From the NCBI GenBank assembly GCA_949775045.1, contig OX459099.1, positions 1,520,501-1,584,500 on the forward strand: a stretch of 64,000 nt of DNA. Direction: 5' to 3'. The notes beneath the pieces were generated by a model. The model saw nothing but the letters and a program-made list of their open reading frames with translations, did not search any database and had not been told where the DNA came from. The DNA is from Metridium senile (lineage: Eukaryota > Cnidaria > Anthozoa > Actiniaria > Metridiidae). Shown piece by piece: positions 15,546-54,052 of this stretch. Numbering within the stretch: the first letter of the stretch is position 1; each line of letters begins with the position of its first letter. The translations under genes and the position numbers were made by a program.

Positions 15546-16817
15546 ATGTCTACCAATACTTCTCGACGTTGCCATTTCTTAACGTTCAACACGAATAAAA
15601 TCGAGCAGGTCAAAAATGTCTACATGGTAGCAGCTACACTGGACGCCATACTCATTCTACCGACTATCGTCCTCAATGTTCTGTTAATAGTTTCTCTGTA
15701 TCGCTCGAGTGAGATTCGTAAACCATCAACTAAACTTCTCTTTTGTCTGGCCATGTCTGATGTCCTTGTAGGGTTGGTAATAGAGCCAGCGCTTTTGGCG
15801 AAGAAGATCGCAGAGTTAAACCACGATTTTAGTACATACTGCTTCACTGGAATGATCACTTATGTCGCTGGAGGGACTCTTACGACCGTCTCATTCTTTA
15901 CCCTAACGGTTATAGCTGTAGATAGGTACCTTGTGATCCACACAGGGACTAAATACAGAACTATAGTCACTAATACGAGAGTCAAACTAACGGGATTAAT
16001 TGTATGGATTTCTGCGTTGATTCTGATGACAGCACAACTTTATTCTCCAAGGTCAGTCTACTTTAAACTGTCAGCATTTGTTGCTGTTTTGTGGGTCGTT
16101 CTAGCATCACTGTGTTATATAAAGTGTTTCATGACTCTAAGAAAGTGTCAGCGAATAACCGGAAGCCTGAATGAAGCAGGAGCTACAAAGCAAAAGCTGA
16201 CAAGTGTCTTTACTTATAAGAAATCTATGCACACCATGGCGTACGTTTTTCTAGTGTTCAACCTCTGTTATTTACCTTTTGTTTGTACTGCTGTTTCAGC
16301 AGTCATCTTGGGCGAGTCTGCAGCTATTTGGGGTGCAGAGAGCATTGCGTCGGTATTCATTTATGGAAATTCTTGTATAAATCCAGTGATTTTATTCTTG
16401 AGGATGAAAGAAATACGAAAAGCAGTGGCCACAACTATGTCGGTTCATTCTCATCATGGCATGCAAAAAGGTAATCCTCGTTGCAATCGCCATCAACTTG
16501 CAACAAAAGGTATCTTTAATCATAATCATGATCCCTGTCACCACACTGACAAAAAAGATAATGATAATAATCACCGTTGCAATCGCCATCAACTTGCAAC
16601 AAAAGACATCTTTAATCATCATCGTGATACCTGTCACAACATTGACAAAAAAGAGAATGATAATAATCATGATCATCACTGTGATTTTTCGCAACACTTT
16701 CTACATTGTGACCACGTTAATGTAAACGCCGCCTATCATAATAACCCTCATCATCATCGCGATGATGATGATCTTTTTGGTCGCTGTTACCATAAAAACG
16801 AACATCAACATAAGTGA
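15546..16817 (+). CDS. Class A (rhodopsin-like) GPCR with histidine-rich C-tail
   Basis: Single-exon gene of 423 codons. Seven hydrophobic segments occupy residues about 27-295. Diagnostic motifs are L-A-M-S-D in TM2 (68-72), the D-R-Y motif at 126-128, F-N-L-C-Y-L-P in TM6 and N-P-V-I-L in TM7 (279-283). It is a plasma-membrane receptor that would signal through G proteins; the ligand cannot be assigned, though it resembles the expanded amine/melanocortin/adenosine-like receptors of cnidarians. The cytoplasmic tail (from about residue 300) is unusual: a repeated module (R-C-N-R-H-Q-L-A-T-K followed by I-F-N-H and D-K-K-x-N-D-N-N-H) gives a His/Asn/Asp-rich region that could bind metal. The frame ends with TGA at 16815-16817, but similar repeats continue in the same frame beyond it. 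Confidence 0.88.
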   Translation: MSTNTSRRCHFLTFNTNKIEQVKNVYMVAATLDAILILPTIVLNVLLIVSLYRSSEIRKPSTKLLFCLAMSDVLVGLVIEPALLAKKIAELNHDFSTYCFTGMITYVAGGTLTTVSFFTLTVIAVDRYLVIHTGTKYRTIVTNTRVKLTGLIVWISALILMTAQLYSPRSVYFKLSAFVAVLWVVLASLCYIKCFMTLRKCQRITGSLNEAGATKQKLTSVFTYKKSMHTMAYVFLVFNLCYLPFVCTAVSAVILGESAAIWGAESIASVFIYGNSCINPVILFLRMKEIRKAVATTMSVHSHHGMQKGNPRCNRHQLATKGIFNHNHDPCHHTDKKDNDNNHRCNRHQLATKDIFNHHRDTCHNIDKKENDNNHDHHCDFSQHFLHCDHVNVNAAYHNNPHHHRDDDDLFGRCYHKNEHQHK

Positions 16818-21137: not shown

Positions 21138-23108
21138 ATGTCCGACGACGAAGTTGGATCGTCACCGAGTGCGAGTAGTGGCGTTTCTGGACCTCAACAG
21201 TCCCCTCCTGTAGCCTTAGCACAACCTATTTTCTCTGTTAAGCCTCCGGAACCACTTAAATTTGGCAAAGACAGCGTCAACAACTGGAAATTGTGGAAGC
21301 AATTATGGCATCATTACTGTATTGTGTCAAACCTGGATGCACACACACCAGCGTTTAAAAAGTCCCTTCTAATATCTACTATGGGTATCGAAGCGTTGCA
21401 GAAATACAATGGCTGTGATCCCGACGACAAGGATACCTCTGACGACATAATCAACAAGCTTGACAAACATATAATGGGCGAACCCAACGAAACTTTCGAA
21501 AGATACAAGTTCAATACCAGAATTCAAGGTCAAGATGAGTCGATAGATGATTACATTACAGCCTTGAAAACACTCATCAAACCCTGCAACTACTGTGATT
21601 GCATTAGAGACAGTCTCCTCAGAGACCGTATTGTTCTTGGTGTAAACAACGAGAGAACAAGAACCCGTCTTCTTCAAGAAAGAAAACTCACTCTGAACAA
21701 GTGCCTAGATATCTGTAAAAGCTTTGAAACCTCAACAAGTCAACTTAAAGTGTTAGCTGGAAAAGAAGTAAACAGAGTGGACAGAAAACCAAGAGAATTA
21801 ACTAACAAGCCACGCAGTCAAAAATTCACAACTCAAGGAGCCAAACCTCGACCAAGTCAAATATTGTGCAAATTCTGTGCACAAAATCACCCCCCGAAAA
21901 AGGAACTATGCCCCGCCTGGGGTAAAGAGTGTAATAAATGCAAGAAGATGAACCACTTTAGTAAGTGTTGCCCACCTCAAGTAAAGAAGAGACTCTATGG
22001 AGTTGATGCTCAGTCTGACTCTGAGTCTGAAGAAGAAATAATCTCTGCTGTTTCAACGACCCAGTCAATCAACTCTGTATCAGCAGGTCCTATATATGCT
22101 GAGATGGAACTGAAAGGCAACCCTGTCAAGTTTCAAGTGGACTGTGGAGCCACAGTCAATGTCATCCCTGCAAAGTATGTTGACCAAGCTCTAGAAAAGT
22201 CAAAGAGTATCCTCTACATGTACAACGAGAGCAAACTTATCCCTCTCGGACAGTGCCGACTATCCCTCAGAAATGTTGCAACCAGAAAGAAGTACAGTGT
22301 AGAATTTGTAGTAGTCAAGGAAGATCTCACCCCGCTCCTCAGCCGGAAAGCAGCTGAACGGATGAATCTAATCACAGTAAACTACGAAAACTTCAAGCAG
22401 TTGCACTCAGTGACCCCAAGGACTGACAACATGCTACACAAATATAGCTCTGTCTTCAATGACAGCACCTTAGGAGACTTACCAGGTAAAGTTAGCATTG
22501 TTGTTGATGAACATGCCAAGCCAGTTCAGTGCCCACCACGAAAAGTTCCTATCGCTGTTAAATCAAAGCTCAAAGAGGAACTCTCTAAGTTAGTTAACCT
22601 ACAGGTTATCACTCCTGTAACTGAACCAACCGACTGGTGTTCACAAATCTCAGTACAGTCAAAGAAGAATGGAAACTTAAGAGTCTGTCTGGATCCTCGA
22701 TCACTCAACGAAGTGCTCTGTCGTGAGCGATATCCTCTGCTAACCATGGATGATGTTCTGCCTCAGCTAGCTAATGCCAAACTCTTCAGCAAAGTTGATC
22801 TATCTCATGGTTACTGGCACTGTACTCTAGATGACCAAAGTAGTCATCTGACAACCTTTATTACGCCATTTGGCCGGTATCGGTGGCTTCGCCTACCATT
22901 TGGCTTGAACGTCAGCTCAGAAATCTTTCAGCGCAAGCTTGATGAATCCCTGGAGGGATTGGACGGTGTTGTCTGTGTTGCTGATGACATACTTGTCTAT
23001 GGAGACTCAGAAGAAAGCCACAACAAAAATCTTGAAACCCTTCTAAAAACCTGCCAGCAAAAGAACATCAAACTTAACAAGAAAAAAAAGTGTCTTCAAA
23101 ACTACTGA
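21138..23108 (+). CDS. Gag-protease-reverse transcriptase of Ty3/gypsy element
   Basis: 656 codons from the first ATG after the LTR. Residues 1-240 are a gag-like matrix/capsid region (W-K-L-W-K-Q-L-W, H-I-M-G-E). A Cys-rich zinc knuckle lies at about 245-280 (C-K-F-C, C-P-A-W, C-N-K-C). An aspartic protease site is V-D-C-G-A-T-V-N-V-I-P at about 334. The RT follows, with L-D-P-R-S-L-N, S-K-V-D-L-S-H-G-Y-W, L-P-F-G-L and catalytic V-A-D-D at about 614-617. Gag and pol share a frame. The frame ends early because of eight A residues at 23082-23089; the next frame continues the RT thumb, so the stop is due to a single extra base or a sequencing error. Confidence 0.93.
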   Translation: MSDDEVGSSPSASSGVSGPQQSPPVALAQPIFSVKPPEPLKFGKDSVNNWKLWKQLWHHYCIVSNLDAHTPAFKKSLLISTMGIEALQKYNGCDPDDKDTSDDIINKLDKHIMGEPNETFERYKFNTRIQGQDESIDDYITALKTLIKPCNYCDCIRDSLLRDRIVLGVNNERTRTRLLQERKLTLNKCLDICKSFETSTSQLKVLAGKEVNRVDRKPRELTNKPRSQKFTTQGAKPRPSQILCKFCAQNHPPKKELCPAWGKECNKCKKMNHFSKCCPPQVKKRLYGVDAQSDSESEEEIISAVSTTQSINSVSAGPIYAEMELKGNPVKFQVDCGATVNVIPAKYVDQALEKSKSILYMYNESKLIPLGQCRLSLRNVATRKKYSVEFVVVKEDLTPLLSRKAAERMNLITVNYENFKQLHSVTPRTDNMLHKYSSVFNDSTLGDLPGKVSIVVDEHAKPVQCPPRKVPIAVKSKLKEELSKLVNLQVITPVTEPTDWCSQISVQSKKNGNLRVCLDPRSLNEVLCRERYPLLTMDDVLPQLANAKLFSKVDLSHGYWHCTLDDQSSHLTTFITPFGRYRWLRLPFGLNVSSEIFQRKLDESLEGLDGVVCVADDILVYGDSEESHNKNLETLLKTCQQKNIKLNKKKKCLQNY

Positions 23109-25215
23109 AGTCGAGTTTCTTGGCCATGTGGTGACCAGCCAAGGCCTTAAACCTGATCCCAAGAAGGTGGAAGCCATTCTGCAAATGGAAAACCCAACTG
23201 ATGTTGCTGGAGTCCGTCGTCTGCAAGGAACTGTCACTTACCTTGCAAAGTTCTTACCACAACTGTCGACTGTCCTGGAACCCATCAGAAGGCTCACTCG
23301 TCAAGAGGAACAGTGGGAATGGACAGAAGAACAAGACAAAGCCATGTCTGAGCTGAAAAAGCTTGTCACAACAGCTCCAGTGCTTGCCTATTATGACCCT
23401 GCAAAGGAACTTACAATACAATGTGATGCTTCGAGCACGGGACTGGGAGCTGTATTACTGCAGGATGAACACCCTCTTGCTTATGCCAGTCGAGCATTGT
23501 CTGACACCGAAACTGGTTATGCGCAAATTGAAAAGGAGTGCCTGGCAATAGTGTTCTCAATGGAAAGATTCCACCAATACACATTTGGCAGGAAGACAAC
23601 AGTCCACACCGACCATAAGCCTCTTGAGATGATTGTCAGAAAGCCTCTACACAAAGCCCCGAAGCGCTTGCAAGGTATGCTTCTAAGGCTTCTACAGTAT
23701 GATACAGAAGTCATCTACAAGAAAGGTACAGAAATGCATATTGCTGATATGTTATCAAGAGCATACCTTCCTCTGGATCCTCACCACAAAGACCAATTCT
23801 CTCAAGTCAATGCTGTGTGTCATCTCAGGATCAGTGAGCAACGATTAAGAGATCTTCAACAAGCGACAAAAATGGACAAGACCCTAGCCATACTGAAGAA
23901 TGTTATCCTGCAAGGGTGGCCAGACTCCAAGCAAAGTCTGCCAACGCAAGTCACCCCTTACTTCTCATACAGAGAAGAACTTACTGTCCATGATGGACTC
24001 GTATTCAAAGGGGAGCGTGTCATCGTCCCTGAAAGTCTTCGCAAACCCTTCAAAGAGCAGCTGCACAGCTCACACCTAGGAGGAGAAAGCATGTTGAGAA
24101 GAGCACGCGAGTGTCTCTTCTGGCCAAACATGGCATCTGACATCAAGCAGATAGCAGACACGTGCGAAGCGTGTCAGACTTTTCCCAAAACGCAGCAGAA
24201 AGAACCGCTGATATCCATTGAAACAGAGTACCCCTGGGAAAAGGTAGGAGCAGATATCTTCACCCTGCAGAAGAAAGATTACTTAGTCACCGTAGACTAC
24301 TTTAGTGGATTCTGGGAGGTAGACCTTCTACGATCAGTCACCTCTACCACTGTCATTAACAGGCTTAAACAACACTTCGCAAGGAATGGAATTCCCTCGG
24401 TCCTGATAAGCGATAACGGCCCACAATTCGCATCACAAGAGTTTCTTGATTTTACATCAAACTGGGACTTTGAACACTGTACCTCTTCGCCACATCACCC
24501 TAATGCTAATGGAAAGGTGGAATCAGCAGTAAAGGCCGCTGAGAAGATGCTAACAAAATGTGCAATGTCTCGCACTGACCCATGTATTGCACTTCTGGAA
24601 ATACGCAACACTCCAACACAAGGAGCAGGAACCAGCCCAGCTCAAAGGCTACTCAACCGGCGAACGAGAACCCTCATACCTGCAACAGACAACAAGCTAG
24701 CGCCAAAAGGAACTGAATATATGCTTGACTCCATGAAGATGAAGCACAACAAAGGCCTGCAAACTAATCAGTACAATAAGGGTGCACGAGAACTACCAAG
24801 CTTAGAAGAAGGTGATACTGTCCGACTCAAACCATACAAGCTAGGTCAGAAGGAGTGGCAGAAAGGTATTGTGACAAAGAGACTTGACGAAAGGTCATAT
24901 GAAGTCGAAACGACATCAGGGACACTAAGAAGAAACAGAGTCCACCTGAAGAAGACTTCCGAATCACCACCTGTGACAGAAGCAGAGAACTACCTGATGG
25001 CACCTACAGCCACAGAACCATCTGAATCGTGTGCGCCCACAAGCAAGCAGCAACCAGTACAGCAGTCTCAACCGCCTCAAAGACCAGCCACTGCACAAGA
25101 AAGTACACCTCCGCTACAAGCTTCTGGACAAGAAGCCACACCCGAGCTCAGGAGATCAAGCAGAGCAACCAAGACACCTACTCATCTCAAGGACTATGTC
25201 ACAGATAAGAAATGA
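23089..25215 (+). CDS. RT thumb, RNase H and integrase of Ty3/gypsy element
   Basis: Continuation of pol in the +1 frame relative to 21138-23108; it has no plausible start codon of its own. It opens with the connection region (G-L-K-P-D-P-K-K). RNase H follows: D-A-S-S-T-G-L-G-A-V-L-L, E-K-E-C-L-A and T-D-H-K-P-L. Then come the integrase zinc domain (H-S-S-H-L-G-G and C-E-A-C-Q) and the catalytic triad: D in G-A-D-I-F, D in S-D-N-G-P-Q-F and E in N-G-K-V-E-S, the last two separated by 35 residues as is usual. The C-terminal region is Pro/Gln-rich, with a basic tail and no chromodomain that I recognise. Confidence 0.92.
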   Translation, partial: SVFKTTEVEFLGHVVTSQGLKPDPKKVEAILQMENPTDVAGVRRLQGTVTYLAKFLPQLSTVLEPIRRLTRQEEQWEWTEEQDKAMSELKKLVTTAPVLAYYDPAKELTIQCDASSTGLGAVLLQDEHPLAYASRALSDTETGYAQIEKECLAIVFSMERFHQYTFGRKTTVHTDHKPLEMIVRKPLHKAPKRLQGMLLRLLQYDTEVIYKKGTEMHIADMLSRAYLPLDPHHKDQFSQVNAVCHLRISEQRLRDLQQATKMDKTLAILKNVILQGWPDSKQSLPTQVTPYFSYREELTVHDGLVFKGERVIVPESLRKPFKEQLHSSHLGGESMLRRARECLFWPNMASDIKQIADTCEACQTFPKTQQKEPLISIETEYPWEKVGADIFTLQKKDYLVTVDYFSGFWEVDLLRSVTSTTVINRLKQHFARNGIPSVLISDNGPQFASQEFLDFTSNWDFEHCTSSPHHPNANGKVESAVKAAEKMLTKCAMSRTDPCIALLEIRNTPTQGAGTSPAQRLLNRRTRTLIPATDNKLAPKGTEYMLDSMKMKHNKGLQTNQYNKGARELPSLEEGDTVRLKPYKLGQKEWQKGIVTKRLDERSYEVETTSGTLRRNRVHLKKTSESPPVTEAENYLMAPTATEPSESCAPTSKQQPVQQSQPPQRPATAQESTPPLQASGQEATPELRRSSRATKTPTHLKDYVTDKK

Positions 25216-35443: not shown

Positions 35444-35964
35444 ATGTCTTGGTCAATCAACCAAGAAGTTGAAAACACCTTCATCGTCGTATTTACGATT
35501 CTAGCAGTTGTAGATATTGTTGGAAATGCTTTAGTTATTTTAGTTGTACAACGGTTTACAAATATGCAAACACCGAATAACTATCTGCTCGTTCACCTTG
35601 CGATTTGTGACGTCTTATTTGGCGTTTTTGTCCTCCTTTTTCGGTTTCTAAACGGTGTTTACGAGCATCCTAAAGGAATAGGTGGTGATTTGCTGTGCAA
35701 ACTCTTCACTACCGGAACTCTTGCCTGGCTCCCGGCCTGTGCAAGTGTATACACACTTGTGGCAATTGCATGGGAAAGGTACAACGCAATTATGAAGCCA
35801 CATGCTCCAAGATTCTCGAAAAGAAAACTCAAAATTGTAGTTGCTTTGTGTTGGTTAGGATCAGCTGTTATTAATATTCCTCAAAAAATATCATATGTCT
35901 ACGACCCTAACTTGAAAACATGCGCTCACCATATTCCATGGATGGAAAAACTGGACTCTATGGT
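35444..35964 (+). pseudogene. Class A GPCR, 5' half (TM1-TM4), split by element
   Basis: Codons 1-174 of a rhodopsin-family receptor. Visible: TM1 with G-N-A-L-V-I-L, TM2 with H-L-A-I-C-D, the extracellular C85, the TM3 motif W-E-R-Y-N (110-114) and TM4 with C-W-L-G-S. A second extracellular Cys sits at 160. The frame is intact up to the target duplication TATGGT, where a 6.1-kb element cuts it between extracellular loop 2 and TM5. The remainder is at 42071-42548; together they span 332 codons in one frame. It closely resembles the intact receptor on the minus strand at 47482-48543, so the two are probably tandem paralogues of a peptide- or amine-type receptor. On this haplotype the gene is presumably disrupted. 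Confidence 0.88.
35959..35964. other. Target-site duplication, left copy
   Basis: TATGGT directly before the element's AGTAGTTTTG terminus; an identical copy is at 42065-42070. Six-bp duplications are the known signature of Polinton/Maverick integration. Confidence 0.93.
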
Positions 35965-36238
35965 AGTAGTTTTGTTTGGATGATTCGACCCCTTTTTTCG
36001 AGCGACTAGGAGTGAATTGGAGCGAATTGTGAGTGACCACATAAATTAACTTGAGTGTCTGACTTAGTTTATTCAAGTGACTTAATTTATTCAATGGTTT
36101 GACGTCAAACATTGAGTGAATTGGTGAATTAATTTATTCAATCGTCATGGTAACCCAATAACACAAGCGGGCAAGTCTGAACAGTTCTTTTGTTCCACAG
36201 AATAGATATATAGCGCGGGAGTTTTGAAATTATTATTA
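35965..36238. repeat. Left terminal inverted repeat (274 bp)
   Basis: Reads AGTAGTTTTGTTTGGATGAT at its start and ends near GAAATTATTATTA. It matches the complement of 41801-42064 nearly throughout, differing by a 10-bp insertion near 36005 and a few substitutions. It contains GACGTCAAAC and repeated AATTTATTCAA/AGTGACTTAA strings. Confidence 0.93.
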
Positions 36239-36290
36239 CTCTTCAAGAAATATTTATTTAAGCTCAAACGAAGTTACTACTGCAGAGAAA

Positions 36291-36713
36291 ATGGCAAGTT
36301 TATTCAAGCTAGGTGAGAGAGGTTATCATGCTACCGTCAAAGAATTCCAAGGAAAGATTAGAGTGCATATCCGAAAATATATTGATATCGAAGAAAGAAA
36401 AAACATTCCTACGAAATTTGGAATTGCACTATCGATCGAAGAGTTTGAGGAACTGAAAAAAGTGATGGACGATTTAACCGAAATGTTGGATGTTATGATT
36501 GATACTTGTTCAATGACCACACAACCAGGAGATGACGAAGAATTATTGTCAGCGATTGAAAATGAACAACCAAATCTACCAAGGAATCAAAGTACACCAA
36601 AAAACTGTAAAAGACCTGAAGTAATAAACGAACCACCGAAGAAAAAACTATTTACGAATGCTATCTCTTGTTTTAGAACCGGAGGAAAACTTAAATCTTC
36701 ATTTAGAAACTAG
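36291..36713 (+). CDS. PC4-like single-stranded-DNA-binding protein
   Basis: 140 codons from the first ATG after the left terminal repeat. Residues about 15-65 carry the pattern of the transcriptional coactivator PC4/p15 C-terminal domain: F-Q-G-K-I-R-V-H-I-R-K-Y, then G-I-A-L-S-I-E-E-F-E-E-L-K-K, giving a four-stranded sheet plus helix. In that family the domain dimerises and binds ssDNA or melted duplex. The C-terminal half is hydrophilic with a basic P-P-K-K-K-L patch. Its place in a viral-type element suggests a role in replication or late transcription, which is inference. An AATAAA signal lies at about 36781. Confidence 0.6.
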   Translation: MASLFKLGERGYHATVKEFQGKIRVHIRKYIDIEERKNIPTKFGIALSIEEFEELKKVMDDLTEMLDVMIDTCSMTTQPGDDEELLSAIENEQPNLPRNQSTPKNCKRPEVINEPPKKKLFTNAISCFRTGGKLKSSFRN

Positions 36714-37403
36714 AATTGATTACTTGTAAATCCTTTTTGATATATAAGTCAATGTTGTGTAATTACCTGTAAGTTTTCTCAATAAAATACTTTTATAAAG
36801 TGAAAAAAGTTGTTTTGTTTATTTTCTCATCACAAAGTGAGGACATTTTGAGAATAGTTTTTCCATCTTCAAGGATTTGAAGTCGTTTGAATCCACACTG
36901 TTATTGATAAGAAGTCTTGAAAAAAGGATCCAAGTGAAAAGCGTGTAATTATGAATAATGAGTTTTCTTATGTTTGCTATTGTTTGTTAATCCTTCTTTT
37001 TGTGCTCATGTCCGTCTTTGTTTATCTTAAGCTAATTGATATTCAAACTTGGCACCAGTCCCCAGTAAACCACACAGGGAAACCAAGGGTCACCTCTTAT
37101 TAGTAATTGATGCAGATCATGAGTTGCTATCAATTTTTGTTTTTGTTTTTAAAAAATATTTATTACACTTATTAATCATAAGATCAACAACAACAACAAC
37201 AAAAATTCTGTTTACAATTTGGATTTAACAAATATTGAGGGATATAGAATTAAGAGTATAATTGTACGCGCTTCGCTACCCTCCGAAATCTCTCCGAAGT
37301 AAGGTTAAGTAGAGATATTTAGATCATACTTAGCGGAAAATTTCAGAAATGATATAATTAATAAAAAAGAAGACTTTTTCACAGTTTGTGGGATTATTAA
37401 TGT
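36714..37403. other. Non-coding spacer in the element
   Basis: AT-rich, between two genes whose 3' ends converge. AATAAA at about 36781 serves the plus-strand gene. No further gene recognised. Confidence 0.5.
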
Positions 37404-38240
37404 CTATTCTTCATCATCATTAGAGCGATTATTAGGGTGGTGACTAATACCACCACAATCATTGCATGACACCAAGATACTTTTTACAGTATCATGATTA
37501 AGTGGAAAATGATGCTTACAAATAGGACAATTGACTACTTGATTTAAACGAGGAGGTCTCAAAGAAGCATCGTGCCACTGACATCTAGGGCAACCAACGA
37601 TACTGTTAACATCAATATTGTAATCTCCACAATGAGCACAAGCATTTTTTTTCTCTTTTTCGTCATTTTCTTCTTCTTCTTCTTGTTCTTCTTCTTCAAA
37701 GTTTGTATTTCCTCCATCTTGATTTCCATTATCTTCACCATCGGAATCTTCTTCTCCTTCTTCTTCTTCCGCTCTCTCTTCGTCATCGGAAGTCATTCTT
37801 TCGTTATTCTGTTCATTTTCAAATTTTTCCTGTTCTTTTTTCAGCACTTCATTCAAAACCTTTTTATTTTTGACCCACTTTTTGTTTATTCCGAGTTCTG
37901 CCAGCCCATCCTCAAATGACTTGAGACCGCGAGGCTCTGAAATTTCTTTGTTATAGGGGAGAAGCACATATTCTATAAGATCCACAATATTGGTTCTAGA
38001 AATGCGACGCTGATTTCGCAGAAGCTCATCGCCCGGAGTCCAAAACAAAATGTTTCTAGAAGTGGCCATACTGTGCAAAAGTTCTGATGCATGTTGTTGA
38101 GAAACTGATCCTGGGAGATCTTGTAAAACCAATTTTATAATAGGTTCATCATCATCATCATCTTCATTGTCACTCAATTCATCAGGGTCTTCTTCCTCGA
38201 AATCTGAATATTCTTCGTCATTTTCTCGCTTTCTCTTCAT
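37404..38240 (-). CDS. Acidic protein with C-terminal zinc-ribbon cluster
   Basis: 278 codons from the first true ATG at 38240; the open frame extends three codons further but only to a TTG. Residues 1-35 are Lys/Arg then Asp/Glu-rich. A conserved-looking core follows with L-H-S-M-A-T-S-R-N-I-L-F-W, L-L-R-N-Q-R-R-I and D-L-I-E-Y-V-L-L-P-Y-N. About 150-200 is almost pure Glu/Asp. The last 80 residues hold four CxxC pairs (C-A-H-C, C-P-R-C, C-P-I-C, C-N-D-C), enough for two zinc ribbons. I recognise the core as a type that accompanies packaging-ATPase genes in cnidarian virus-like elements, but its function is unknown to me. Its stop lies near an inverted duplicate of its own 3' end at 40728-40840. 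Confidence 0.7.
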   Translation of the reverse strand: MKRKRENDEEYSDFEEEDPDELSDNEDDDDDEPIIKLVLQDLPGSVSQQHASELLHSMATSRNILFWTPGDELLRNQRRISRTNIVDLIEYVLLPYNKEISEPRGLKSFEDGLAELGINKKWVKNKKVLNEVLKKEQEKFENEQNNERMTSDDEERAEEEEGEEDSDGEDNGNQDGGNTNFEEEEQEEEEENDEKEKKNACAHCGDYNIDVNSIVGCPRCQWHDASLRPPRLNQVVNCPICKHHFPLNHDTVKSILVSCNDCGGISHHPNNRSNDDEE

Positions 38241-38305
38241 TTTGAACAAGTTACTCCTACCAATTACTAAAACAAATGACTTTCTAGAAGAAGGAGCTTC
38301 TGAAT

Positions 38306-38623
38306 TTATATTAAAAGTCCAGTCAGAAAAGGGATTAGCAAATCGGGAATAAATGAGCCACCCTCTTGAACAAGAATTTGTTTCTTTTTCTTGTAAGAAA
38401 TATTCGGATCTTGAATACTTTTGATGGATTCTTTGTAGGGGATCAACATTGTAAGGTCATGATTATTCAGCGGAACATATCCCTTGCAAACATTGTGTGC
38501 TGCTTGGACTATGGCATGGACCTGTTCTGGAGTTGCAGTATCAAGTAAGAATTGTCGTTGATGATGTGGACAGGAAACTAACAGTTGAAGATAGCCACGA
38601 TTCCTCTTTACTACTTGAGACAT
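38306..38623 (-). CDS. Small basic GG-motif protein of Polinton/adinto-like elements
   Basis: 105 codons from ATG at 38623. The middle contains H-A-I-V-Q-A-A-H-N-V-C-K-G-Y-V-P-L and the end K-K-K-K-Q-I-L-V-Q-E-G-G-S-F-I-P followed by a hydrophobic stretch F-L-T-G-L-L-I. The helical N-terminus, the lysine run before V-Q-x-G-G and the hydrophobic end are typical of a short-protein family in virus-like elements of cnidarians and other invertebrates. The GG resembles an adenovirus-type maturation cleavage site, suggesting a minor virion protein (inference), although no protease gene is present here. A TATA-like box lies 35-42 nt upstream, and the next gene starts 65 nt downstream. Confidence 0.65.
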   Translation of the reverse strand: MSQVVKRNRGYLQLLVSCPHHQRQFLLDTATPEQVHAIVQAAHNVCKGYVPLNNHDLTMLIPYKESIKSIQDPNISYKKKKQILVQEGGSFIPDLLIPFLTGLLI

Positions 38624-38657
38624 GATGACCGAATGACCTGAGTTTGAGTTGAGAGTT

Positions 38658-38667
38658 ATATTTATAC
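38658..38667 (-). promoter_or_regulatory. TATA box for minus-strand genes
   Basis: The minus strand reads GGTATAAATATAAC about 40 nt before the ATG at 38623. With the plus-strand TATA at 39288 it makes a divergent promoter pair around the minisatellite. Confidence 0.6.
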
Positions 38668-38753
38668 CATTTCGATCATTAACAAAGAGCTATATTTACC
38701 AGGCTACATTAACTATACCTCAAATGTAGGTTATAATATATCTGTGTTATACT

Positions 38754-39245
38754 CGGTTTCAGTATAAGCTATAGGCTACAATAGGTTACAGTTCTAGGCT
38801 ACAGTAGGCTACAGGTGTAGGCTACAATAGGCTACAGGTGTAGGTTACAGGTGTAGGCTACAGTAGGCTACAGGTGTACGCTACAGTAGGCTACAATAGG
38901 CTACAGGTGTACGCTACAGGTGTACGCTACAGTTGTAGGCTACAGTTGTAGCCTACAGTAGGCTACAGGTGTAGGCTACAGTTGTAGGCTACAGTTGTAG
39001 GCTACAATATGTTATAATTGTAGGCTACAGTTGTAGGCTACAGTAGGCTACAGGTGTAGGCTACAGTTGTAGGCTACAGTTGTAGGCTACAGTTGTAGGC
39101 TACAGTTGTAGGCTACAGTAGGCTACAGGTGTAGGCTACAGTTGTAGCCTACAGTAGGCTACAAGTGTAGGATACAGTAGACTACATTTGTAGGCTACAA
39201 TATGCTACAGGTGCATGTTACAGGTGTACGCTACAGTAGGCTACA
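38754..39245. repeat. 12-13-bp minisatellite between divergent promoters
   Basis: About 35-40 imperfect copies of TAGGCTACAGTTG / TAGGCTACAGGTG. It lies centrally between the minus-strand and plus-strand transcription units of the element. Confidence 0.92.
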
Positions 39246-39287
39246 GGTATTGGTTTTACTTAGTGGCCAGGCCTTCAATTAAAATGA

Positions 39288-39295
39288 TATATAAT
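39288..39295 (+). promoter_or_regulatory. TATA box upstream of zinc-finger/ATPase frames
   Basis: TATATAAT about 40 nt before ATG 39335, which is then the first AUG of the predicted transcript. Confidence 0.55.
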
Positions 39296-39334
39296 TGATC
39301 TCAGAAGGGCCATTTGGTCATTTGGTCAGAGACC

Positions 39335-39406
39335 ATGAAACGAAACTGTCCTATTTGTAAGGAGCCTAAAGCAAACCTTTGGAGTCATTTAAAAGGAGTA
39401 CATTAG
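39335..39406 (+). CDS. C2H2 zinc-finger micro-ORF overlapping ATPase frame
   Basis: 23 codons from the first ATG after the TATA box, ending TAG. Residues form C5-x2-C8-x9-H18-x4-H23, the pattern of one zinc finger (M-K-R-N-C-P-I-C at the start, W-S-H-L-K-G-V-H at the end). The ATPase frame lies in the -1 phase and has no ATG before its P-loop. T-TTA-AAA, which fits the X-XXY-YYZ rule for -1 slippage, is at 39388-39394 in the finger's own frame. It could be a leader peptide, the start of an ATPase fusion made by frameshifting, or a remnant of a gene broken by an indel. Confidence 0.5.
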   Translation: MKRNCPICKEPKANLWSHLKGVH

Positions 39407-40662
39407 GAGGAATTAATTCAGATTTCAACCAAAAAGAAAAAGAGTGCAAACCATTCTATTTAAAGCACCCCTTTACTTGTATGGTTTCTGGAATGACCGG
39501 ATGTGGAAAAACCACTTGGGTACAAAATGTATTGGAACATAAAAGCCGTATGATTACCCCAACGCCCCAGAGAATAATATGGTGTTATACAAGATGGCAG
39601 CCGGCCTATATGGAAATGATGCAGACTATACCTGGAATTGAATTTGTGAAAGGAATTCCCTCTAATATCGAAAGCGATGATTATTTTAATGTCAATGTGC
39701 GCAATCTCATCGTCATTGATGATCAAATGAGTTCCGCCAGTAACGACAAACAGGTTATCAACTTGTTTACCCAGGGCTCCCATCATCGCAACCTTAGTGT
39801 TATCTACTTGGTTCAAAATCTCTTTCATCAGAGCAAAGGAAACAGGGATATCAGCTTAAATTGTCACTACTTGGTAATATTCAAAAACCCCAGAGATAAA
39901 CTTCAAATTTTCACATTGGCCAAGCAAATGTACCCAAGAAAAACCGAATATTTTCTTCAGAAGTATGAAGAGGCGGTGAGCAGACCTTTTGGATACCTAC
40001 TCATCGATTTAAAAACAACCACTCCAGATGATTGTAGACTTAGAACCAATATTCTGCCTGACGAAAAGCAACAGCCAGAAGATTCATCCGTAGATAAGGT
40101 ATCGAAGGAATTGATCAAATACCTCAAGCAACAAAGTATTGTTCTTCCTCCCATCGCGTCAAAAGTACAAAATTTGCAAGATCAAATGGTTGATACATTG
40201 AATGATTCCAACCTCAGTGTTGATCAAAAAGCTCGTGAGTATGTCAACCTCCAAAATGATTTTCTTCAATACAAGAAAAAGTTGAATTCAACTCCTTCGC
40301 CACTTCCCCGACCTTCTTCCAATTCAATGCCACCTGTTCCTATGGACCCACCAACTGAATCAATGCCGCCCCCATTTCACGAAAATGGTATCAGCCAATC
40401 AGAGGTTTCTACACCATTACCTACTCCTTCAATTTCAAATTATCAACCCTTTACCCCAGTGCAAACTCTGGTTCCTGAAGGGTTATTAACACCACCTCCG
40501 AGTTCATCACCTGGTGAAAGAAAACGAAAGCGACCTCGATTTGACCAGATCAAGAATATGTTGGATGATGATGCCCATAAAGTTCAAGGACCCTATTTAA
40601 AAGCTTATCGTACACGGCGATCTATGAGAATAAGGAATCGCTTTAATCCTTTATTAGACTGA
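39379..40662 (+). CDS. A32-like (FtsK/HerA superfamily) genome-packaging ATPase
   Basis: 427 codons counted from a TTG; the first in-frame ATG (39481) is inside the P-loop strand, so the true start is not ATG in this frame. Walker A G-M-T-G-C-G-K-T at residues 38-45, a W-C-Y motif after it, Walker B N-L-I-V-I-D-D-Q at about 109-116, and a conserved H-H-R-N-L-S-V-I-Y-L-V-Q-N strand. Residues about 310-375 are Pro/Ser-rich and the end is basic. This ATPase type pumps DNA into icosahedral capsids in Polinton-like elements, adintoviruses and large DNA viruses. Presence without capsid genes suggests packaging in trans, or decay. Upstream context is the overlapping zinc-finger ORF. AATAAA lies near 40851. 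Confidence 0.88.
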   Translation: MESFKRSTLGGINSDFNQKEKECKPFYLKHPFTCMVSGMTGCGKTTWVQNVLEHKSRMITPTPQRIIWCYTRWQPAYMEMMQTIPGIEFVKGIPSNIESDDYFNVNVRNLIVIDDQMSSASNDKQVINLFTQGSHHRNLSVIYLVQNLFHQSKGNRDISLNCHYLVIFKNPRDKLQIFTLAKQMYPRKTEYFLQKYEEAVSRPFGYLLIDLKTTTPDDCRLRTNILPDEKQQPEDSSVDKVSKELIKYLKQQSIVLPPIASKVQNLQDQMVDTLNDSNLSVDQKAREYVNLQNDFLQYKKKLNSTPSPLPRPSSNSMPPVPMDPPTESMPPPFHENGISQSEVSTPLPTPSISNYQPFTPVQTLVPEGLLTPPPSSSPGERKRKRPRFDQIKNMLDDDAHKVQGPYLKAYRTRRSMRIRNRFNPLLD

Positions 40663-40727
40663 ACAGTGGTGATTCTTTCAGTTGAATACTTAACCACCAG
40701 TAACAGGCAATTGTGCAACTATAAATT

Positions 40728-40840
40728 AGTAGTCAATTGTCTTAATCATGATACTGTAAAAAGTATCCCGGTGTCATGTAATGATTGTGGTGGCATTAGT
40801 CACCACCCTAATAATTGTTCTAGTGATGATGAAGAATAGT
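40728..40840 (+). repeat. Inverted duplicate of the acidic gene's 3' end
   Basis: The plus strand repeats the coding end of the 37404-38240 gene (TTAATCATGATACTGTAAAA, TCATGTAATGATTGTGGTGG, GATGATGAAGAATAG) with about eight substitutions in 100 bp and one 24-bp deletion. It still encodes C-N-D-C-G-G-I-S-H-H-P. It is in opposite orientation to the parent gene, 3.3 kb away. Confidence 0.85.
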
Positions 40841-40880
40841 AATAAATTATTCAACAAACTGAGTGTTCGAGTCGGTGACG

Positions 40881-41751
40881 TTAACCGTCAAAATCGTCAG
40901 ACTCCCAATCCACCCAAAAGCTGTTATTATTGTTCTTATAGGTGAGGGTTATTTGAGCCAAACTCGGTTCCTCATGCTTTCCGGTGGCCACAACAGGACA
41001 CTCATAATACAACAGAAGTTTGTACAGTTCACGTGCTTGTTTTTCATGCAGCGGTAATGTGCCGGGATCCAACCGATATTGACCGAAGTAAAAGTCATAA
41101 AACTCGTTGTACAATTCCTCGTAATGGTCTTTCAAAATGCCTATGAAAAACCTTTCATACGAGAGTCGTGACGACGCCAGGACACGGTCCTTTTCATCAA
41201 AAAATGTCACAGAGACCACGCACCCCAACGTTTCGATGTCACGGTCGGTTCGATCCCAACGGCGAGTCTGCCCCTGACCCGATTTTGGGTTCGCCCTCAC
41301 AAAGTCGATCAAACTCTGAAACTCCCTGTCGGCATGGATGACCTCCCGAGGCGGTTGCACAAGATGTCGGATCACGTCAATTATGTCTTCCGTCATGGTG
41401 AAGCTTTTGATTCTTCGGGCCCCGAGATTGCAGAAAAATCGACTCTCGTAACCTTCTTTGACAGGACGACCGAGAGAGTCCAGGAGTGGGTTCGTTCGCA
41501 TGTTGTACACAATAACGTGATAGTGGTCGCCAAAAAAAATATGGTTGGGGTCCTTGAGATGGCTGACCAACAAGTATTCTGTGAGGGAAAAAAAAAATGA
41601 GCCACGCCTTTGATGTCAACGTTCTATTCCCCAAACTACTTACGTTGAGTGAGCTCTTCACGACAATATTCTTATATTCCCTCAAAGGCGGCAACTGTAA
41701 AGCAGAAAAATGCAGAGCGCCGTGACATGTTCTCTCCTCGAAGTCTGCCAC
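40881..41751 (-). CDS. Unknown protein, possible HUH-type Rep domain, frame break at T10
   Basis: Two minus-strand frames. ATG 41751 runs to a run of ten Ts (41588-41597), beyond which the homologous-looking frame continues to a stop at 40881 (about 230 codons). The second part starts near Y-L-L-V-S-H-L and has G-D-H-Y-H-V-I-V-Y, i.e. H-hydrophobic-H flanked by beta-strand residues. Then come R-R-I-K-S-F and H-L-V-Q-P-P-R-E-V-I, an order seen in parvovirus/densovirus-type replication nickases. No SF3 helicase follows. Either one T is extra, or a GTAAGT (41641) to TTTTCCCTCACAG (41579) intron exists; that intron would change frame, so the homopolymer indel fits better. The HUH call rests on weak motif similarity. 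The last residues are acidic (D-D-F-D-G). Confidence 0.4.
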
Positions 41752-41800
41752 AGCAGTATATTAGACTATGGTTGGGAAGATTGAAGGAAAGGTTGAAGGT

Positions 41801-42064
41801 TAATAATAATTTCAAAACTCCCGCGCTATATATCTATTCTGTGGAACAAAAGAACTGTTCAGACTTGCCCGCTTGCGTTATTGGGTTACCATGACGATTG
41901 AATAAATTAATTCACCAATTCACTCAATGTTTGACGTCAAACCATTGAATAAATTAAGTCACTTGAATAAATTAAGTCAGACACTCAAGTTAATTTATTT
42001 GGTCACTCACAATTCGCTCCAAGTCACTCGAAAAAAGGGGTCGAATCATCCAAACAAAACTACT
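41801..42064. repeat. Right terminal inverted repeat (264 bp)
   Basis: Complement of 35965-36238, ending ATCCAAACAAAACTACT. Lacks the 10-bp insertion of the left copy. Confidence 0.93.
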
Positions 42065-42070
42065 TATGGT
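42065..42070. other. Target-site duplication, right copy
   Basis: TATGGT, identical to 35959-35964, joined directly to the element's CT terminus. Confidence 0.93.
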
Positions 42071-42548
42071 ATGGTTATTATGCGTCGGCACTCTACCTAT
42101 TGTTATTATGACTGTACTTTATGGAAGAGTTATTTTCTCTTTGTGGGGAATTTCAAACAGTCCTGATAATGTTGCTCAGAGATCGTTGATACAATCTCGA
42201 AAAAGAATTACTAAATCTGGAATAACTGTCACTGTCTTCTTCATGGTATGTTGGATGCCTAATTTACTAAGCTATACTGTCATTACTCATAAAGACTTGC
42301 CTTATGTCGCCTCTAAAGAAAACTCGGTGGTTTTGTGGAGGCATTCTACTATCTTTTTACTGCTTTTAAACTCGAGCCTTAATCCTTTTATCTACGAACT
42401 ACCTGATAAACGGTTCAGACGATGTTTGAGAGACTTGTTTAAATGTGTCTGTAAAAGGAGGAGGCCGAATCGTATTCACTTAGATAGCAATGAAGAAATT
42501 AAAATGAAGAACATAAGGAGAGAAGGGATGACAAAACGTACAGAATAG
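42071..42548 (+). pseudogene. Class A GPCR, 3' half (TM5-TM7 and tail)
   Basis: Resumes the receptor frame interrupted at 35964: W-L-L-C-V-G-T-L-P opens TM5, matching W-L-V-C-V-G-N-L-P in the paralogue at 47482-48543. It continues with R-K-R-I-T-K-S before TM6, the TM6 motif V-C-W-M-P-N, the TM7 motif L-N-P-F-I-Y and a basic cytoplasmic tail, ending TAG. No stop or frameshift within it. The ATG at 42066 is created by the target duplication and is not the gene's start. Confidence 0.88.
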
Positions 42549-47481: not shown

Positions 47482-48543
47482 TCATTTTCTTGTTTCATCG
47501 ACGGATTGCTTTGCATTGCAATTCGTTTGTTCCTCGATATTCTTTTCATCGTTATTATTATTTTGTGTTTTTAATTCACGATCGGTTTGCATGGCTGTAT
47601 TATCTCTACCAAGAACTGATATATTTGTTCTTTTTCTAGTCAGCAACCGACGCAAGCATTTTCTAAATTTTGTATACTGAAGCGCATAAACAAACGGGTT
47701 GACAGCTGAGTTCAAAAAGACTAAAGTATGCGTAATGGCGTTGAAAGCGGGTAATATTGTCTCAAGATCATTCAGCGGAGACTCGCTCGCTGGCCGCATT
47801 TGTGAATACGTGAAGTATATGAGGTTAGGATTCCAGCAGATGAATCCAATCACCGCGACTATTACAACCGTCTTTGTTATTCTTCTACGTGACATCAACA
47901 ATGAACGTTGATTGACATGAATGGGCATTGTAGGCCACCACAGAACTTTGATAACTCTTGCATAAAGTATCATCATTAGAAAAAAAGGTAGATTACCAAC
48001 GCAAACCAGCCAAATTACCGAGTCAAGTTTCGGTGCCCATGTTTGCCCGTAATTTGTCCAATTATAGTCACATGCTTTGATTGTAGGATTATATTCCAAC
48101 GCTAACGTCTCGAGTAAACACACCATACAGCTCATTATCCAGCAAATTACGATCATACACCTGATTGTTTTCTTGGAAAATCTTCTCTTCAGAGGATAGA
48201 CTACAGCATTGTATCTCTCCCATGCTATTGCAATAATAGTATAAGTACTAGCGCAGGCTGCTATCCAGCCCACATTTCCAAAAGTCACAAATTTACAGAG
48301 AATATCTCCAGCTAATCCACTTGGGTGTACGTACTTCCCTGTCCAAGTTATTCGACGTGGAAAAATGAACATACCAAAGAGCATGTCAGATACGGCAAGG
48401 TGAACGATTAGATAGTTCATAGGTGTTCTCATGTAGGGAAATCGATACACAACGTAGCAAACGATGCTATTTCCAGTGACGTTAACCACTATCAAGAATG
48501 TGAAGACCGATTGTAAAACAATTTGAACTTCGTGGGAGTACAT
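47482..48543 (-). CDS. Class A GPCR, intact (paralogue of the split receptor)
   Basis: 353 codons, single exon, start ATG 48543. TM1 N-V-T-G-N-S (21-26), TM2 H-L-A-V-S-D, disulphide cysteines C83 and C158, TM3 W-E-R-Y-N (108-112), TM4 C-W-I-M-S, TM6 C-W-N-P (236-239), TM7 N-P-F-V-Y (282-286). The third loop R-S-L-L-M-S-R-R-R-I-T-K is basic. The tail has an Asn run encoded by a repeat. It is a plasma-membrane receptor of the rhodopsin family with peptide-receptor-like spacing; the ligand is unknown. Its TM5 start (K-L-D-S-V-I-W-L-V-C-V-G) confirms what the split receptor encoded across its insertion site. Confidence 0.92.
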   Translation of the reverse strand: MYSHEVQIVLQSVFTFLIVVNVTGNSIVCYVVYRFPYMRTPMNYLIVHLAVSDMLFGMFIFPRRITWTGKYVHPSGLAGDILCKFVTFGNVGWIAACASTYTIIAIAWERYNAVVYPLKRRFSKKTIRCMIVICWIMSCMVCLLETLALEYNPTIKACDYNWTNYGQTWAPKLDSVIWLVCVGNLPFFLMMILYARVIKVLWWPTMPIHVNQRSLLMSRRRITKTVVIVAVIGFICWNPNLIYFTYSQMRPASESPLNDLETILPAFNAITHTLVFLNSAVNPFVYALQYTKFRKCLRRLLTRKRTNISVLGRDNTAMQTDRELKTQNNNNDEKNIEEQTNCNAKQSVDETRK

Positions 48544-52954: not shown

Positions 52955-54052
52955 ATGCTGTATAAAACCACTAAGATCAAGACAGCACACTACTTAACAA
53001 CGAGTGCTGACCCACATGTCCAACTTGTCTCATCTTTCCAATTGTACAAGGAAAAGAAGTCTCTAAAGTCCATAATAAAGGATGCAAAAACGTATGCACA
53101 CCAACTAAACCTGGACATAAGATATGACTCCAAAGAAAAAACAACCACCATCACTTCAAGTAGCGCTAGTGCAGAAGTATCTAAATGCCAGCCAAGATAC
53201 ATTAAATCAATACTTAGGAAAGAAACAGAGAAGAAACTGGAGGAGGAGGTAAAGCAACAACCGTGGGTTGGACAGTACCTTACTACGCAATGGAAAGACC
53301 AAGATCTAGAGAAAGAAAGCTACAATATAAACAAGATATGGAAAAACATCCCTGATGTTGTCTACAGTGTATATACCAGTATCTTTCAACAACTAATAAC
53401 AACAAAGACTTACCAACGAAAGAAACTAAACAATAGAGAAGGCGATTTAATCTGCAGACTATGCCATCAAAAAGAAGAAACAATTCCACACCTATTCTCA
53501 AACTGCTCAGGTATCGCTCAATCTTTATACACGGCAAGGCATGACCGTATGCTTCGCCCTGTGTACCATCAAATCCTATCACATTTTGGGTTTACAGAAC
53601 AAGACGACAATACACCGTGGCACAAACAATCACTCCCAAAAAGCTGCATAGAAAATGACGAAGCCAAAATACTGTGGAACATCCCAATACATCTAGACAT
53701 TGCCCCAAAAAATGGCGCAAACAAACCAGACATTACAATAATGGACAAGAAGACCAAGACGTGGCTGATCATCGAAGGAACCGTATGCAACATCGGTCGC
53801 ATAACTGAAAGAGATCTTCAGAAAACAGAAAAGTATATAGACTTAAGAACAGGATTAAAGAGACTCTATCCTAACTATAACGTAGTGCAAGTAAACGTCG
53901 TCCTAGACTTCCTAGCAGGCTACCAAAAACAACTGGTAACTGAGCTAAGTAAAATAGGACTCGAAAAAGTAAACCAACTAGCCAAAAAGTGCCAGAAATG
54001 GATAATTTCGCAAAATTGTGAAATCGTGAAGGCCTTATATACCCGTTCATAA
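52955..54052 (+). pseudogene. 3' part of R2/NeSL-like retrotransposon ORF (zinc finger plus restriction-like endonuclease)
   Basis: An open frame of 365 codons to a TAA, beginning at the edge of the AAT array, so it is 5'-truncated (RT missing). Residues about 167-185 form a CCHC finger, C-R-L-C-H with H-L-F-S-N-C. After it comes a restriction-like endonuclease: K-P-D-I-T-I-M-D at about 256, then W-L-I-I-E-G-T (E274) and a Lys-containing helix, then V-V-Q-V-N-V-V-L-D-F-L. In site-specific and NeSL-type LINEs this nuclease nicks the target for priming of reverse transcription. No stop disrupts it. A 100-bp 3' UTR and a further AAT tail follow. Confidence 0.75.

What the first reader, a model, noticed from the sequence alone, without database searches (positions are those of the whole stretch)
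35959..42070. Complete 6.1-kb virus-derived element captured with exact ends and 6-bp target duplication
Seen: inverted repeats of 274 and 264 bp with AG...CT termini, TATGGT on both sides, and a packaging-type ATPase among five or six genes. Known: Polintons/Mavericks make 6-bp duplications and have AG-starting ends, and A32-like ATPases mark them and adintoviruses. The element is only 6,100 bp, so it does not match a standard Polinton. Inference: a compact Polinton/adinto-like lineage or satellite that may be undescribed.
Basis: partly seen in the sequence, partly recalled or inferred. Interest (0 to 1): 0.92.

Follow-up and report, generated by a model that had tools for sequence, protein, structure and literature searches.

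The report
Capsid-less satellite of animal Polinton viruses
A 6-kb virus-like element in an animal genome, probably a coral or anemone relative, appears to be a parasite of larger resident Polinton viruses: it shares their DNA ends and carries its own packaging-type genes, but has no coat, polymerase or integrase gene.

Summary
In detail: a 6,100-bp element (35965-42064) with 282/272-nt inverted repeats (AGTAGT...ACTACT) and a TATGGT duplication interrupts a GPCR exon. It is neither a lone copy nor an internal deletion. In this genome 19 copies were read at both ends, and all 19 have perfect 6-bp duplications. Larger Polintons (14.8-17.5 kb) have near-identical ends. Window element and 17.5-kb Polinton share 844 bp at the left end (99.4%), including a PC4-like gene; beyond that, ATPase and small protein are only 50% and 28% identical. 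A second, 4.6-kb family has the same three-gene core (Zn-ribbon protein, small protein, long ATPase) with other ends. Of 34 Polinton-type ATPase hits 32 have capsid and integrase hits within 10 kb; of 63 satellite-type hits none has either. Satellite ATPases form one clade (100/100); the core shows purifying selection. Best reading: a long-lived lineage of capsid-less Polinton satellites that borrows replication, integration and capsids from helpers and supplies its own packaging motor. Helper dependence is inferred, not shown. Ten paper searches listed no such satellite of animal Polintons.

The parts
35444..35964 (+). host GPCR exon, left part, including the first copy of the TATGGT target duplication (35959-35964)
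   Evidence: joined flanks give one open GPCR frame; paralogue at 47482-48543 uninterrupted
35965..36246 (+). left terminal inverted repeat, 282 nt, starts AGTAGT
   Evidence: 40 scored genome matches of 103 candidates; near-identical to ends of 14.8-17.5-kb Polintons
36291..36713 (+). PC4-like protein (single-stranded-DNA-binding/transcription coactivator family), 140 aa; identical protein in helper Polinton
   Evidence: Pfam PF02229 1.2e-9; PDB PC4 1.6e-5; 140/140 aa in L061
36951..37103 (+). doubtful 50-aa frame with a hydrophobic stretch
   Evidence: no family match
37382..37502 (+). inner inverted repeat, left arm (121 nt), probable relic of an older terminal repeat
   Evidence: in the older relative L083/L077 this repeat is at least 231 nt and runs on outward
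37404..38249 (-). acidic protein with 8 conserved cysteines (Zn-ribbon-like), 281 aa; N-terminal half related to the C-terminal half of the Polinton 263-aa protein
   Evidence: 8 Cys invariant in 15 aligned sequences; hhalign probability 94.8
38306..38623 (-). small protein, 105 aa, homologue of the 110-aa protein next to the ATPase in Polintons
   Evidence: 28% identity, 2.6e-12; 38.5% to satB
38771..39248 (.). central tandem-repeat array (TAGGCTACAGTTG-type units); turning point of the palindromic copy that was read
   Evidence: counterpart in satB L065:2996-3270
39379..40662 (+). A32/FtsK-type packaging ATPase with C-terminal extension homologous to the N-terminus of the Polinton 263-aa protein; the N-terminus of this copy differs from the 475-aa frame of other copies
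   Evidence: Pfam Pox_A32 1.8e-5
40741..40861 (-). inner inverted repeat, right arm (duplicates the Zn gene's 3' end)
40881..41573 (-). orphan 230-aa frame (U230), no ATG at its start, a 3' splice-site-like tract just upstream
   Evidence: 49 genome matches; no homologue; PDB best E 0.34
41793..42064 (-). right terminal inverted repeat, 272 nt, ends ACTACT
42065..42548 (+). second copy of TATGGT (42065-42070) and the rest of the host GPCR exon

Best explanation
The element (family 'satA') is a capsid-less, integrating DNA satellite of Polinton (Maverick) viruses. Proposed working: its ends, nearly identical to those of resident 14.8-17.5-kb Polintons, are recognised by the Polinton's polymerase and integrase, so it is copied as linear DNA and inserted with a 6-bp duplication. 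The genes it keeps are a diverged version of the Polinton packaging/core cassette (long ATPase, small protein, Zn-ribbon protein). Their most likely job is to load satellite rather than helper DNA into helper capsids. Shown: the anatomy, copies, duplications, end sharing, lack of polymerase, integrase, protease and capsid genes, single-clade ATPase, purifying selection. Inferred: copying by the helper polymerase, packaging in helper capsids, redirection by the satellite motor.
For: 19 of 19 two-ended copies have perfect 6-bp duplications; 17 of 19 are 6,100-6,200 bp. The ends and 844 bp match the 17.5-kb Polinton at 99.4%, but ATPase is 49.5% and small protein 28% identical. satB (4.6 kb, TSD AAAGAG) has the same three genes in the same order and strands. 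Of 19 protein queries from two Polintons, only ATPase, small protein and 263/257-aa protein match satA or satB at E <= 0.01. MCP and integrase hits within 10 kb: 32 of 34 Polinton-type, 0 of 24 satB-type, 0 of 39 satA-type ATPase hits. Satellite ATPases form one clade, 100/100. Ka/Ks 0.24-0.26 (ATPase), 0.31 (Zn), 0.27 (small protein). Two palindromic copies have correct 6-bp duplications; the one read lacks ATPase and U230, and neither has a U230 hit, so those genes are not needed in cis for insertion. An older relative keeps only the core and has other ends. 115 of 120 listed database ATPases carry the fused domain.
Against: No particle, transcript or extrachromosomal form was examined. No relatives in IMG/VR. 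Redirection of packaging is an idea, not a result. satB's link to a helper is only 23 terminal nt plus a 68-bp stretch. The helper 'PolB' label rests on position and motifs that I recalled (DANNLYG, TDTDS): Pfam, PDB and PHROGs gave no polymerase match, only an endonuclease VII stretch. In the helper A copy read, that region is split over frames.
Confidence: 0.75

Rival explanations
1. An ordinary non-autonomous Polinton: integrase in trans moves anything with the right ends, and the internal genes are passengers without a role in its spread.
For: The palindromic copy read lacks ATPase and U230 and was still inserted exactly; L064 has satB-type sequence at its ends and other contents.
Against: Ka/Ks of 0.24-0.31 over the three core genes; the same three genes in the same layout in two families with different ends; one ATPase clade and a fused architecture in 115 of 120 listed database homologues. 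Ka/Ks between close copies is higher (0.41, and 0.97 on 9 changes), which fits this rival or low numbers.
Confidence: 0.15
2. Internal deletion derivative of a resident Polinton.
For: Shared ends and PC4 gene with the 17.5-kb element; Polinton ATPase and small protein are distant homologues.
Against: Core proteins only 28-50% identical to those of the Polinton with matching ends; gene order and strands differ; no MCP or integrase hit within 10 kb of 63 satellite-type ATPase hits.
Confidence: 0.03
3. An autonomous transposon in its own right, U230 or the Zn protein being a recombinase or replication protein.
For: U230 is also in another small element (L064) and has an HYH tripeptide in frame.
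Against: The satB copy read lacks U230 and so does the palindrome read, yet both have exact insertions; no family match; the HYH lies upstream of the first ATG of the frame.
Confidence: 0.03
4. A satellite kept because it protects the host by interfering with its helper (virophage-like defence).
For: Would follow if the satellite motor competes with the helper's; helper and satellite both have several near-identical copies.
Against: No data on interference; recent insertions, one of them in a GPCR exon, look like selfish spread.
Confidence: 0.04

Closest known systems
Polintons/Mavericks (Polintoviruses), including adintovirus-like animal forms
   Same: 6-bp duplication; (AGT)2...(ACT)2 ends as reported for vertebrate Mavericks (PMC8097293, passages seen); packaging ATPase family (PMC4028283, passages seen)
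   Different: 6.1 or 4.6 kb against 15-20 kb; no polymerase, integrase, protease or capsid protein found; ATPase fused to part of the Polinton 263-aa protein
Transpovirons of Mimiviridae (PMC7031253, abstract and passages seen)
   Same: About 7-kb DNA with 380-520-nt terminal repeats, a zinc-finger protein, no DNA polymerase, found in virophage and giant-virus particles
   Different: Their core helicase is absent here; hosts are giant viruses and virophages; here the element is integrated in an animal genome with 6-bp duplications and encodes a packaging-type ATPase
Phage satellites such as PICIs (capsid hijack described in PMC6431247, passages seen) and P4 (recalled)
   Same: Proposed logic: small integrated element using helper capsids and altering packaging
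   Different: Unrelated genes (recalled); packaging hijack is not demonstrated here
Virophages (Lavidaviridae)
   Same: Dependence on a larger DNA virus; kinship to Polintons (PMC4028283, passages)
   Different: Virophages encode their own capsid (recalled); this element has none that matches the resident Polinton capsids

Membership tests
Polinton/Maverick (autonomous) | terminal inverted repeats with AG/AGT start and 6-bp duplication | tested here: met
   motif in PMC8097293
Polinton/Maverick (autonomous) | RVE integrase | tested here: not met
   two helper integrases do not match satA or satB; 0 of 63 satellite-type ATPase hits within 10 kb of an integrase hit
Polinton/Maverick (autonomous) | protein-primed PolB | tested here: not met
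   helper B polymerase-like protein and three of the helper A pieces do not match satA or satB at E <= 0.01; no Pfam polymerase match in the element
Polinton/Maverick (autonomous) | double jelly-roll MCP and penton | tested here: not met
   helper MCPs and the 252/259-aa proteins (penton by position only) do not match; MCP hits within 10 kb of 0 of 63
Polinton/Maverick (autonomous) | A32/FtsK-like packaging ATPase | tested here: met
   Pox_A32 1.8e-5; 49.5% to Polinton ATPase
Internal-deletion Polinton | interior colinear and near-identical to a resident full-length element | tested here: not met
   apart from the repeats and the left 844 bp only a 27-nt match; tested against one helper A copy
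Satellite of a helper virus | cannot multiply without helper | not testable with these tools
   gene content and shared ends only
Satellite of a helper virus | cis signals shared with a co-resident helper | tested here: met
   satA and helper A ends 94-99% alike; satB shares 23 terminal nt with helper B
Transpoviron | core helicase | tested here: not met
   the ATPase is in the A32 group; a PF01443 match just below its cut-off covers the P-loop only
Adintovirus | MCP, penton, PolB and integrase (definition recalled) | tested here: not met

The most novel reading that the evidence does not exclude
Animal DNA viruses of the Polinton kind have their own satellites: one old clade, spread through hexacorals, which gave up capsid, polymerase and integrase, kept and remodelled the packaging motor to load itself into helper capsids, and changes helper by swapping its DNA ends.
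Probability: 0.5. Interest if true: 0.92.

Novelty: new variant of a known kind. Interest (0 to 1): 0.83.

Why it matters
Polintons are thought to be integrated viruses, but Maverick particles had not been observed as of 2021 (start of the abstract of PMC8097293, listing). A satellite that keeps a packaging-type motor under purifying selection while having no capsid gene is indirect evidence that capsids are, or recently were, made and that packaging is contested. It would extend the satellite-helper contest known from phages and giant viruses to animal DNA viruses. It also gives a testable system: shared ends, palindromic by-products, and end replacement between helper and satellite.

Tried and rejected
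Internal deletion of a 17.5-kb Polinton: rejected. Lone copy or assembly join: rejected. HUH endonuclease idea for U230 (an HYH tripeptide): not supported; no Pfam match, PDB best E 0.34, and the tripeptide precedes the first ATG. Spliced N-terminus for U230: a GTAAGT and a CACAG tract are there, but by hand the joined frame meets a stop upstream (sequence); left open. Free viral forms in IMG/VR: none by three scans. U230 homologues in the protein collection: none of 89 candidates. Structure prediction of U230: not run, so no fold search. GPCR paralogue search in the genome: not completed. Family support for the helper polymerase: not found.

Selection to bear in mind. The 120 database ATPases are the best 120 of 647 with the satA query, so they lean to the satellite side. 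Tree 1 used 56 of them: every second row of the 111 that were at least 300 aa long. Tree 2 used 16 of the 120, 4 of 6 own-genome satellite rows and 8 of 11 helper-A-type rows, plus helper B. The 34/24/39 ATPase classes were sorted by me, by identity, from the 101 rows; 4 second pieces of genes already counted were dropped; fragments and broken copies are included. Searches used only part of the MCP and integrase lists; one search repeated the test with all 107 and 111 rows and the counts did not change. One search scored 98 of 738 candidates and one search scored 40 of 103, so copy counts are lower bounds. The 19 copies are those for which both a left-end and a U230 locus had been fetched. In one search one helper A polymerase piece (with the low-complexity stretch) was left out.
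Full report
What is there. The element lies at 35965-42064 of the window, flanked by TATGGT on both sides, with arms of 282 and 272 nt that differ by one 10-nt gap and 6 mismatches. It sits in the coding exon of a GPCR; removing it with one target copy gives one open frame, and a paralogue at 47482-48543 reads through the same place uninterrupted. Its frames, left to right, are: PC4-like (+), Zn-ribbon acidic protein (-), small 105-aa protein (-), a tandem-repeat array, ATPase (+) and an orphan 230-aa frame, U230 (-). A 121-nt inner inverted repeat brackets the Zn-small-ATPase core.

A family, not an accident. The left repeat has 40 scored matches among 103 candidates in the 389-Mb genome. Of the 30 left-end loci fetched, 19 belong to satA copies, 4 to two palindromic copies and 7 have the left-end type of the larger elements. 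19 of 19 copies with both ends fetched have perfect 6-bp duplications, 18 different 6-mers (TATATA twice, in two copies 100 kb apart). 17 of 19 are 6,100-6,200 bp; the others are 6,783 and 12,017 bp. Over the first 1,782 bp the copies are a median 99.8% identical pairwise, minimum 98.4%, so the spread is recent.

The likely helper. The same ends bound four 17.5-kb intervals and one of 14.8 kb, and all five contain an MCP hit and an integrase hit. One 17.5-kb copy, read in two pieces, has the duplication CCTGGG. It codes for the PC4-like protein, polymerase-like pieces, ATPase, a 110-aa small protein, a 263-aa protein, an adenovirus-type protease (Peptidase_C5 1.9e-4, just over the cut-off), a double-jelly-roll-like protein (1.4e-3, under the cut-off) and an integrase with chromodomain (rve 1.6e-9). 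Its MCP is present in 10 copies at 100% (rounded) identity. The window element matches its first 844 bp at 99.4%, with an identical PC4 protein, but its ATPase is only 49.5% and its small protein 28% identical. So the ends are shared and the interior is not.

The polymerase label. I call the 1,026-aa frame of helper B (L080:2808-5888) PolB because of its place and of DANNLYG and TDTDS motifs (motifs recalled). Pfam, PDB and PHROGs gave no polymerase match to it, only an endonuclease VII stretch. Helper A's pieces match it weakly (25-31%). That Polintons carry a protein-primed PolB is from PMC4028283 (passages).

A second satellite family. L065 holds a 4,576-bp element (satB) with repeats of 558 and 568 nt, the same AGTAG start, duplication AAAGAG and three genes in the same order and strands as in the window: Zn protein (31%), small protein (38.5%), ATPase (50% over 339 aa). 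Its repeat search (40 of 175 candidates scored) gives pairs mostly 3.7-5.0 kb apart, one of 9.4 kb. Searching the terminal 19 nt also finds pairs 10.3, 13.4 and 14.1 kb apart. The 14.1-kb one was read: a second Polinton (helper B) with the polymerase-like protein in one frame, ATPase, small protein, 257-aa protein, protease (C5 0.0042, under the cut-off), an MCP 42% identical to helper A's, integrase with chromodomain, and duplication AGTACA. It shares 23 terminal nt and a 68-bp stretch (90%) with satB. satB's link to a helper is thus weaker than satA's.

What the satellites lack. Of 19 proteins or pieces of the two Polintons, only ATPase, small protein and the 263/257-aa protein match satA or satB at E <= 0.01; polymerase-like, protease, MCP, 148-aa, 252/259-aa and integrase proteins do not. 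Genome-wide, sorting the 101 ATPase hits into 34 Polinton-type, 24 satB-type and 39 satA-type (4 second pieces dropped), an MCP hit lies within 8 or 10 kb for 32 of 34, 0 of 24 and 0 of 39, and an integrase hit within 10 kb for 32 of 34, 0 of 24 and 0 of 39; the two Polinton-type misses are the same in both tests (with partial lists gave the same counts).

Origin of the core. The helper's 263-aa protein appears to be split in the satellites: its N-terminal part corresponds to the ATPase's C-terminal extension (hhalign probability 96.6) and its C-terminal part to the N-terminal half of the Zn protein (94.8). The C2H2 finger at the N-terminus of many satellite ATPases (51 of 120 listed ones by a simple motif) is not specific, since helper B's ATPase has one too (by eye). 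In the tree with helper B as outgroup, the 20 satellite-type ATPases form one clade (100/100); 7 of 8 helper-A-type ATPases form its sister group (96/96) and one (L071) falls outside both (92/86). An earlier quick tree of 73 rows gave the same split. Helper B is a very long branch, so the root is unsure. One clade and one rearranged architecture suggest a single origin.

Selection and reach. Against older relatives at C12:3477681 and C3:4855713, Ka/Ks is 0.24-0.26 for the ATPase; against the first it is 0.31 for the Zn protein and 0.27 for the small protein. Between those two relatives it is 0.41. For U230 it is 0.48 on few changes and about 1 against a degenerate copy; between two close satB copies it is 0.97 on 9 changes, which says little. 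Database homologues: 647 for the ATPase and 90 for the Zn protein, with names from Oculina, Actinostola, Actinia and Exaiptasia where named; the source species of the window was not identified. Five contig lengths occur in both lists, four of them over 100 kb (570661, 958424, 1025186, 3127703), suggesting the genes lie together in other species; this rests on list values, not on read contigs. 115 of the 120 listed ATPases contain the fused domain.

How it seems to move. Two copies are palindromes with two left ends. The one read is 6,243 bp and 99.8% symmetric, turning in the central repeat array; both have correct 6-bp duplications (AATATA, GGCCAC). The one read lacks the ATPase and U230; the other has no U230 hit (all 52 candidates scored), and its ATPase was not checked. 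Such mirror forms are expected from terminal strand-displacement copying of linear DNA (general knowledge of adenovirus-type replication, recalled). The older relative keeps the core at 90-91% but lacks the window's left end and PC4, and its similarity stops before U230; its own repeat lies where the window's inner repeat lies and runs on outward (right side read for only about 70 bp). The window family therefore looks like an old satellite core given new ends from the current helper. L064 carries satB-type end sequence and a piece of satA's right end, another sign of exchange.

Mechanism. Helper polymerase and integrase acting on shared ends is the most likely route (inferred; strong for the integrase, moderate for the polymerase). 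Packaging into helper capsids with a satellite-coded motor is the most likely reason to keep these three genes (inferred, moderate). Interference with the helper is possible but untested.

Novelty. Ten paper searches over open-access PMC listed no satellite of animal Polintons. I saw passages of six papers and only listings of the rest. Subscription papers and repeat databases such as Repbase were not searched, so a catalogue entry for this family as a non-autonomous Polinton could exist. I rate it a new variant of a known kind.

Noticed in passing
window 21138-25215: Gypsy-type retroelement (by eye) with gag-pol split over two frames (21138-23108, 23128-25215).
   Followed up: no
window 15546-16817, 35444-42548, 47482-48543: Three GPCR-like genes with long single exons; the finding's element disrupts one of them.
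   Followed up: partly
L064, left end at 1456: Small element with satB-type repeat (94-95%) carrying a 207-aa C2H2 protein, a U230 homologue and a piece of satA's right end: a third gene combination; its right terminus does not match.
   Followed up: partly
L082; G000 C6:13722861-13729257: Palindromic, doubly left-ended satA copies inserted with correct duplications; probably by-products of linear DNA replication caught in a genome.
   Followed up: partly
G000: Many distinct Polinton lineages in one genome (MCPs at about 100, 97-99, 84, 69, 50, 45, 42 and 39% to helper A), many with open frames.
   Followed up: no
L061 4043-8532: Polymerase-like region of this helper A copy lies in several frames and contains a low-complexity stretch; helper B (L080:2808-5888) has a 1,026-aa frame with an endonuclease VII match inside it.
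   Followed up: partly
window 41573-41650: The U230 frame has no ATG at its start and is preceded by a polypyrimidine-CACAG tract and a GTAAGT roughly 65-70 nt upstream.
   Followed up: partly
L063 and G000 C10:8034109 / 8047970: Distant U230 relative (63%) present twice in inverted orientation 13.9 kb apart, perhaps inside long terminal repeats of another element.
   Followed up: no
window 38771-39248 and L065 2996-3270: Both satellite families have a tandem array with TAGGCTA/TAGCCT-type units between the small protein and the ATPase; possibly a cis signal.
   Followed up: partly
window 52955-54052: 365-aa open frame that looks like the end of a non-LTR reverse transcriptase (by eye).
   Followed up: no
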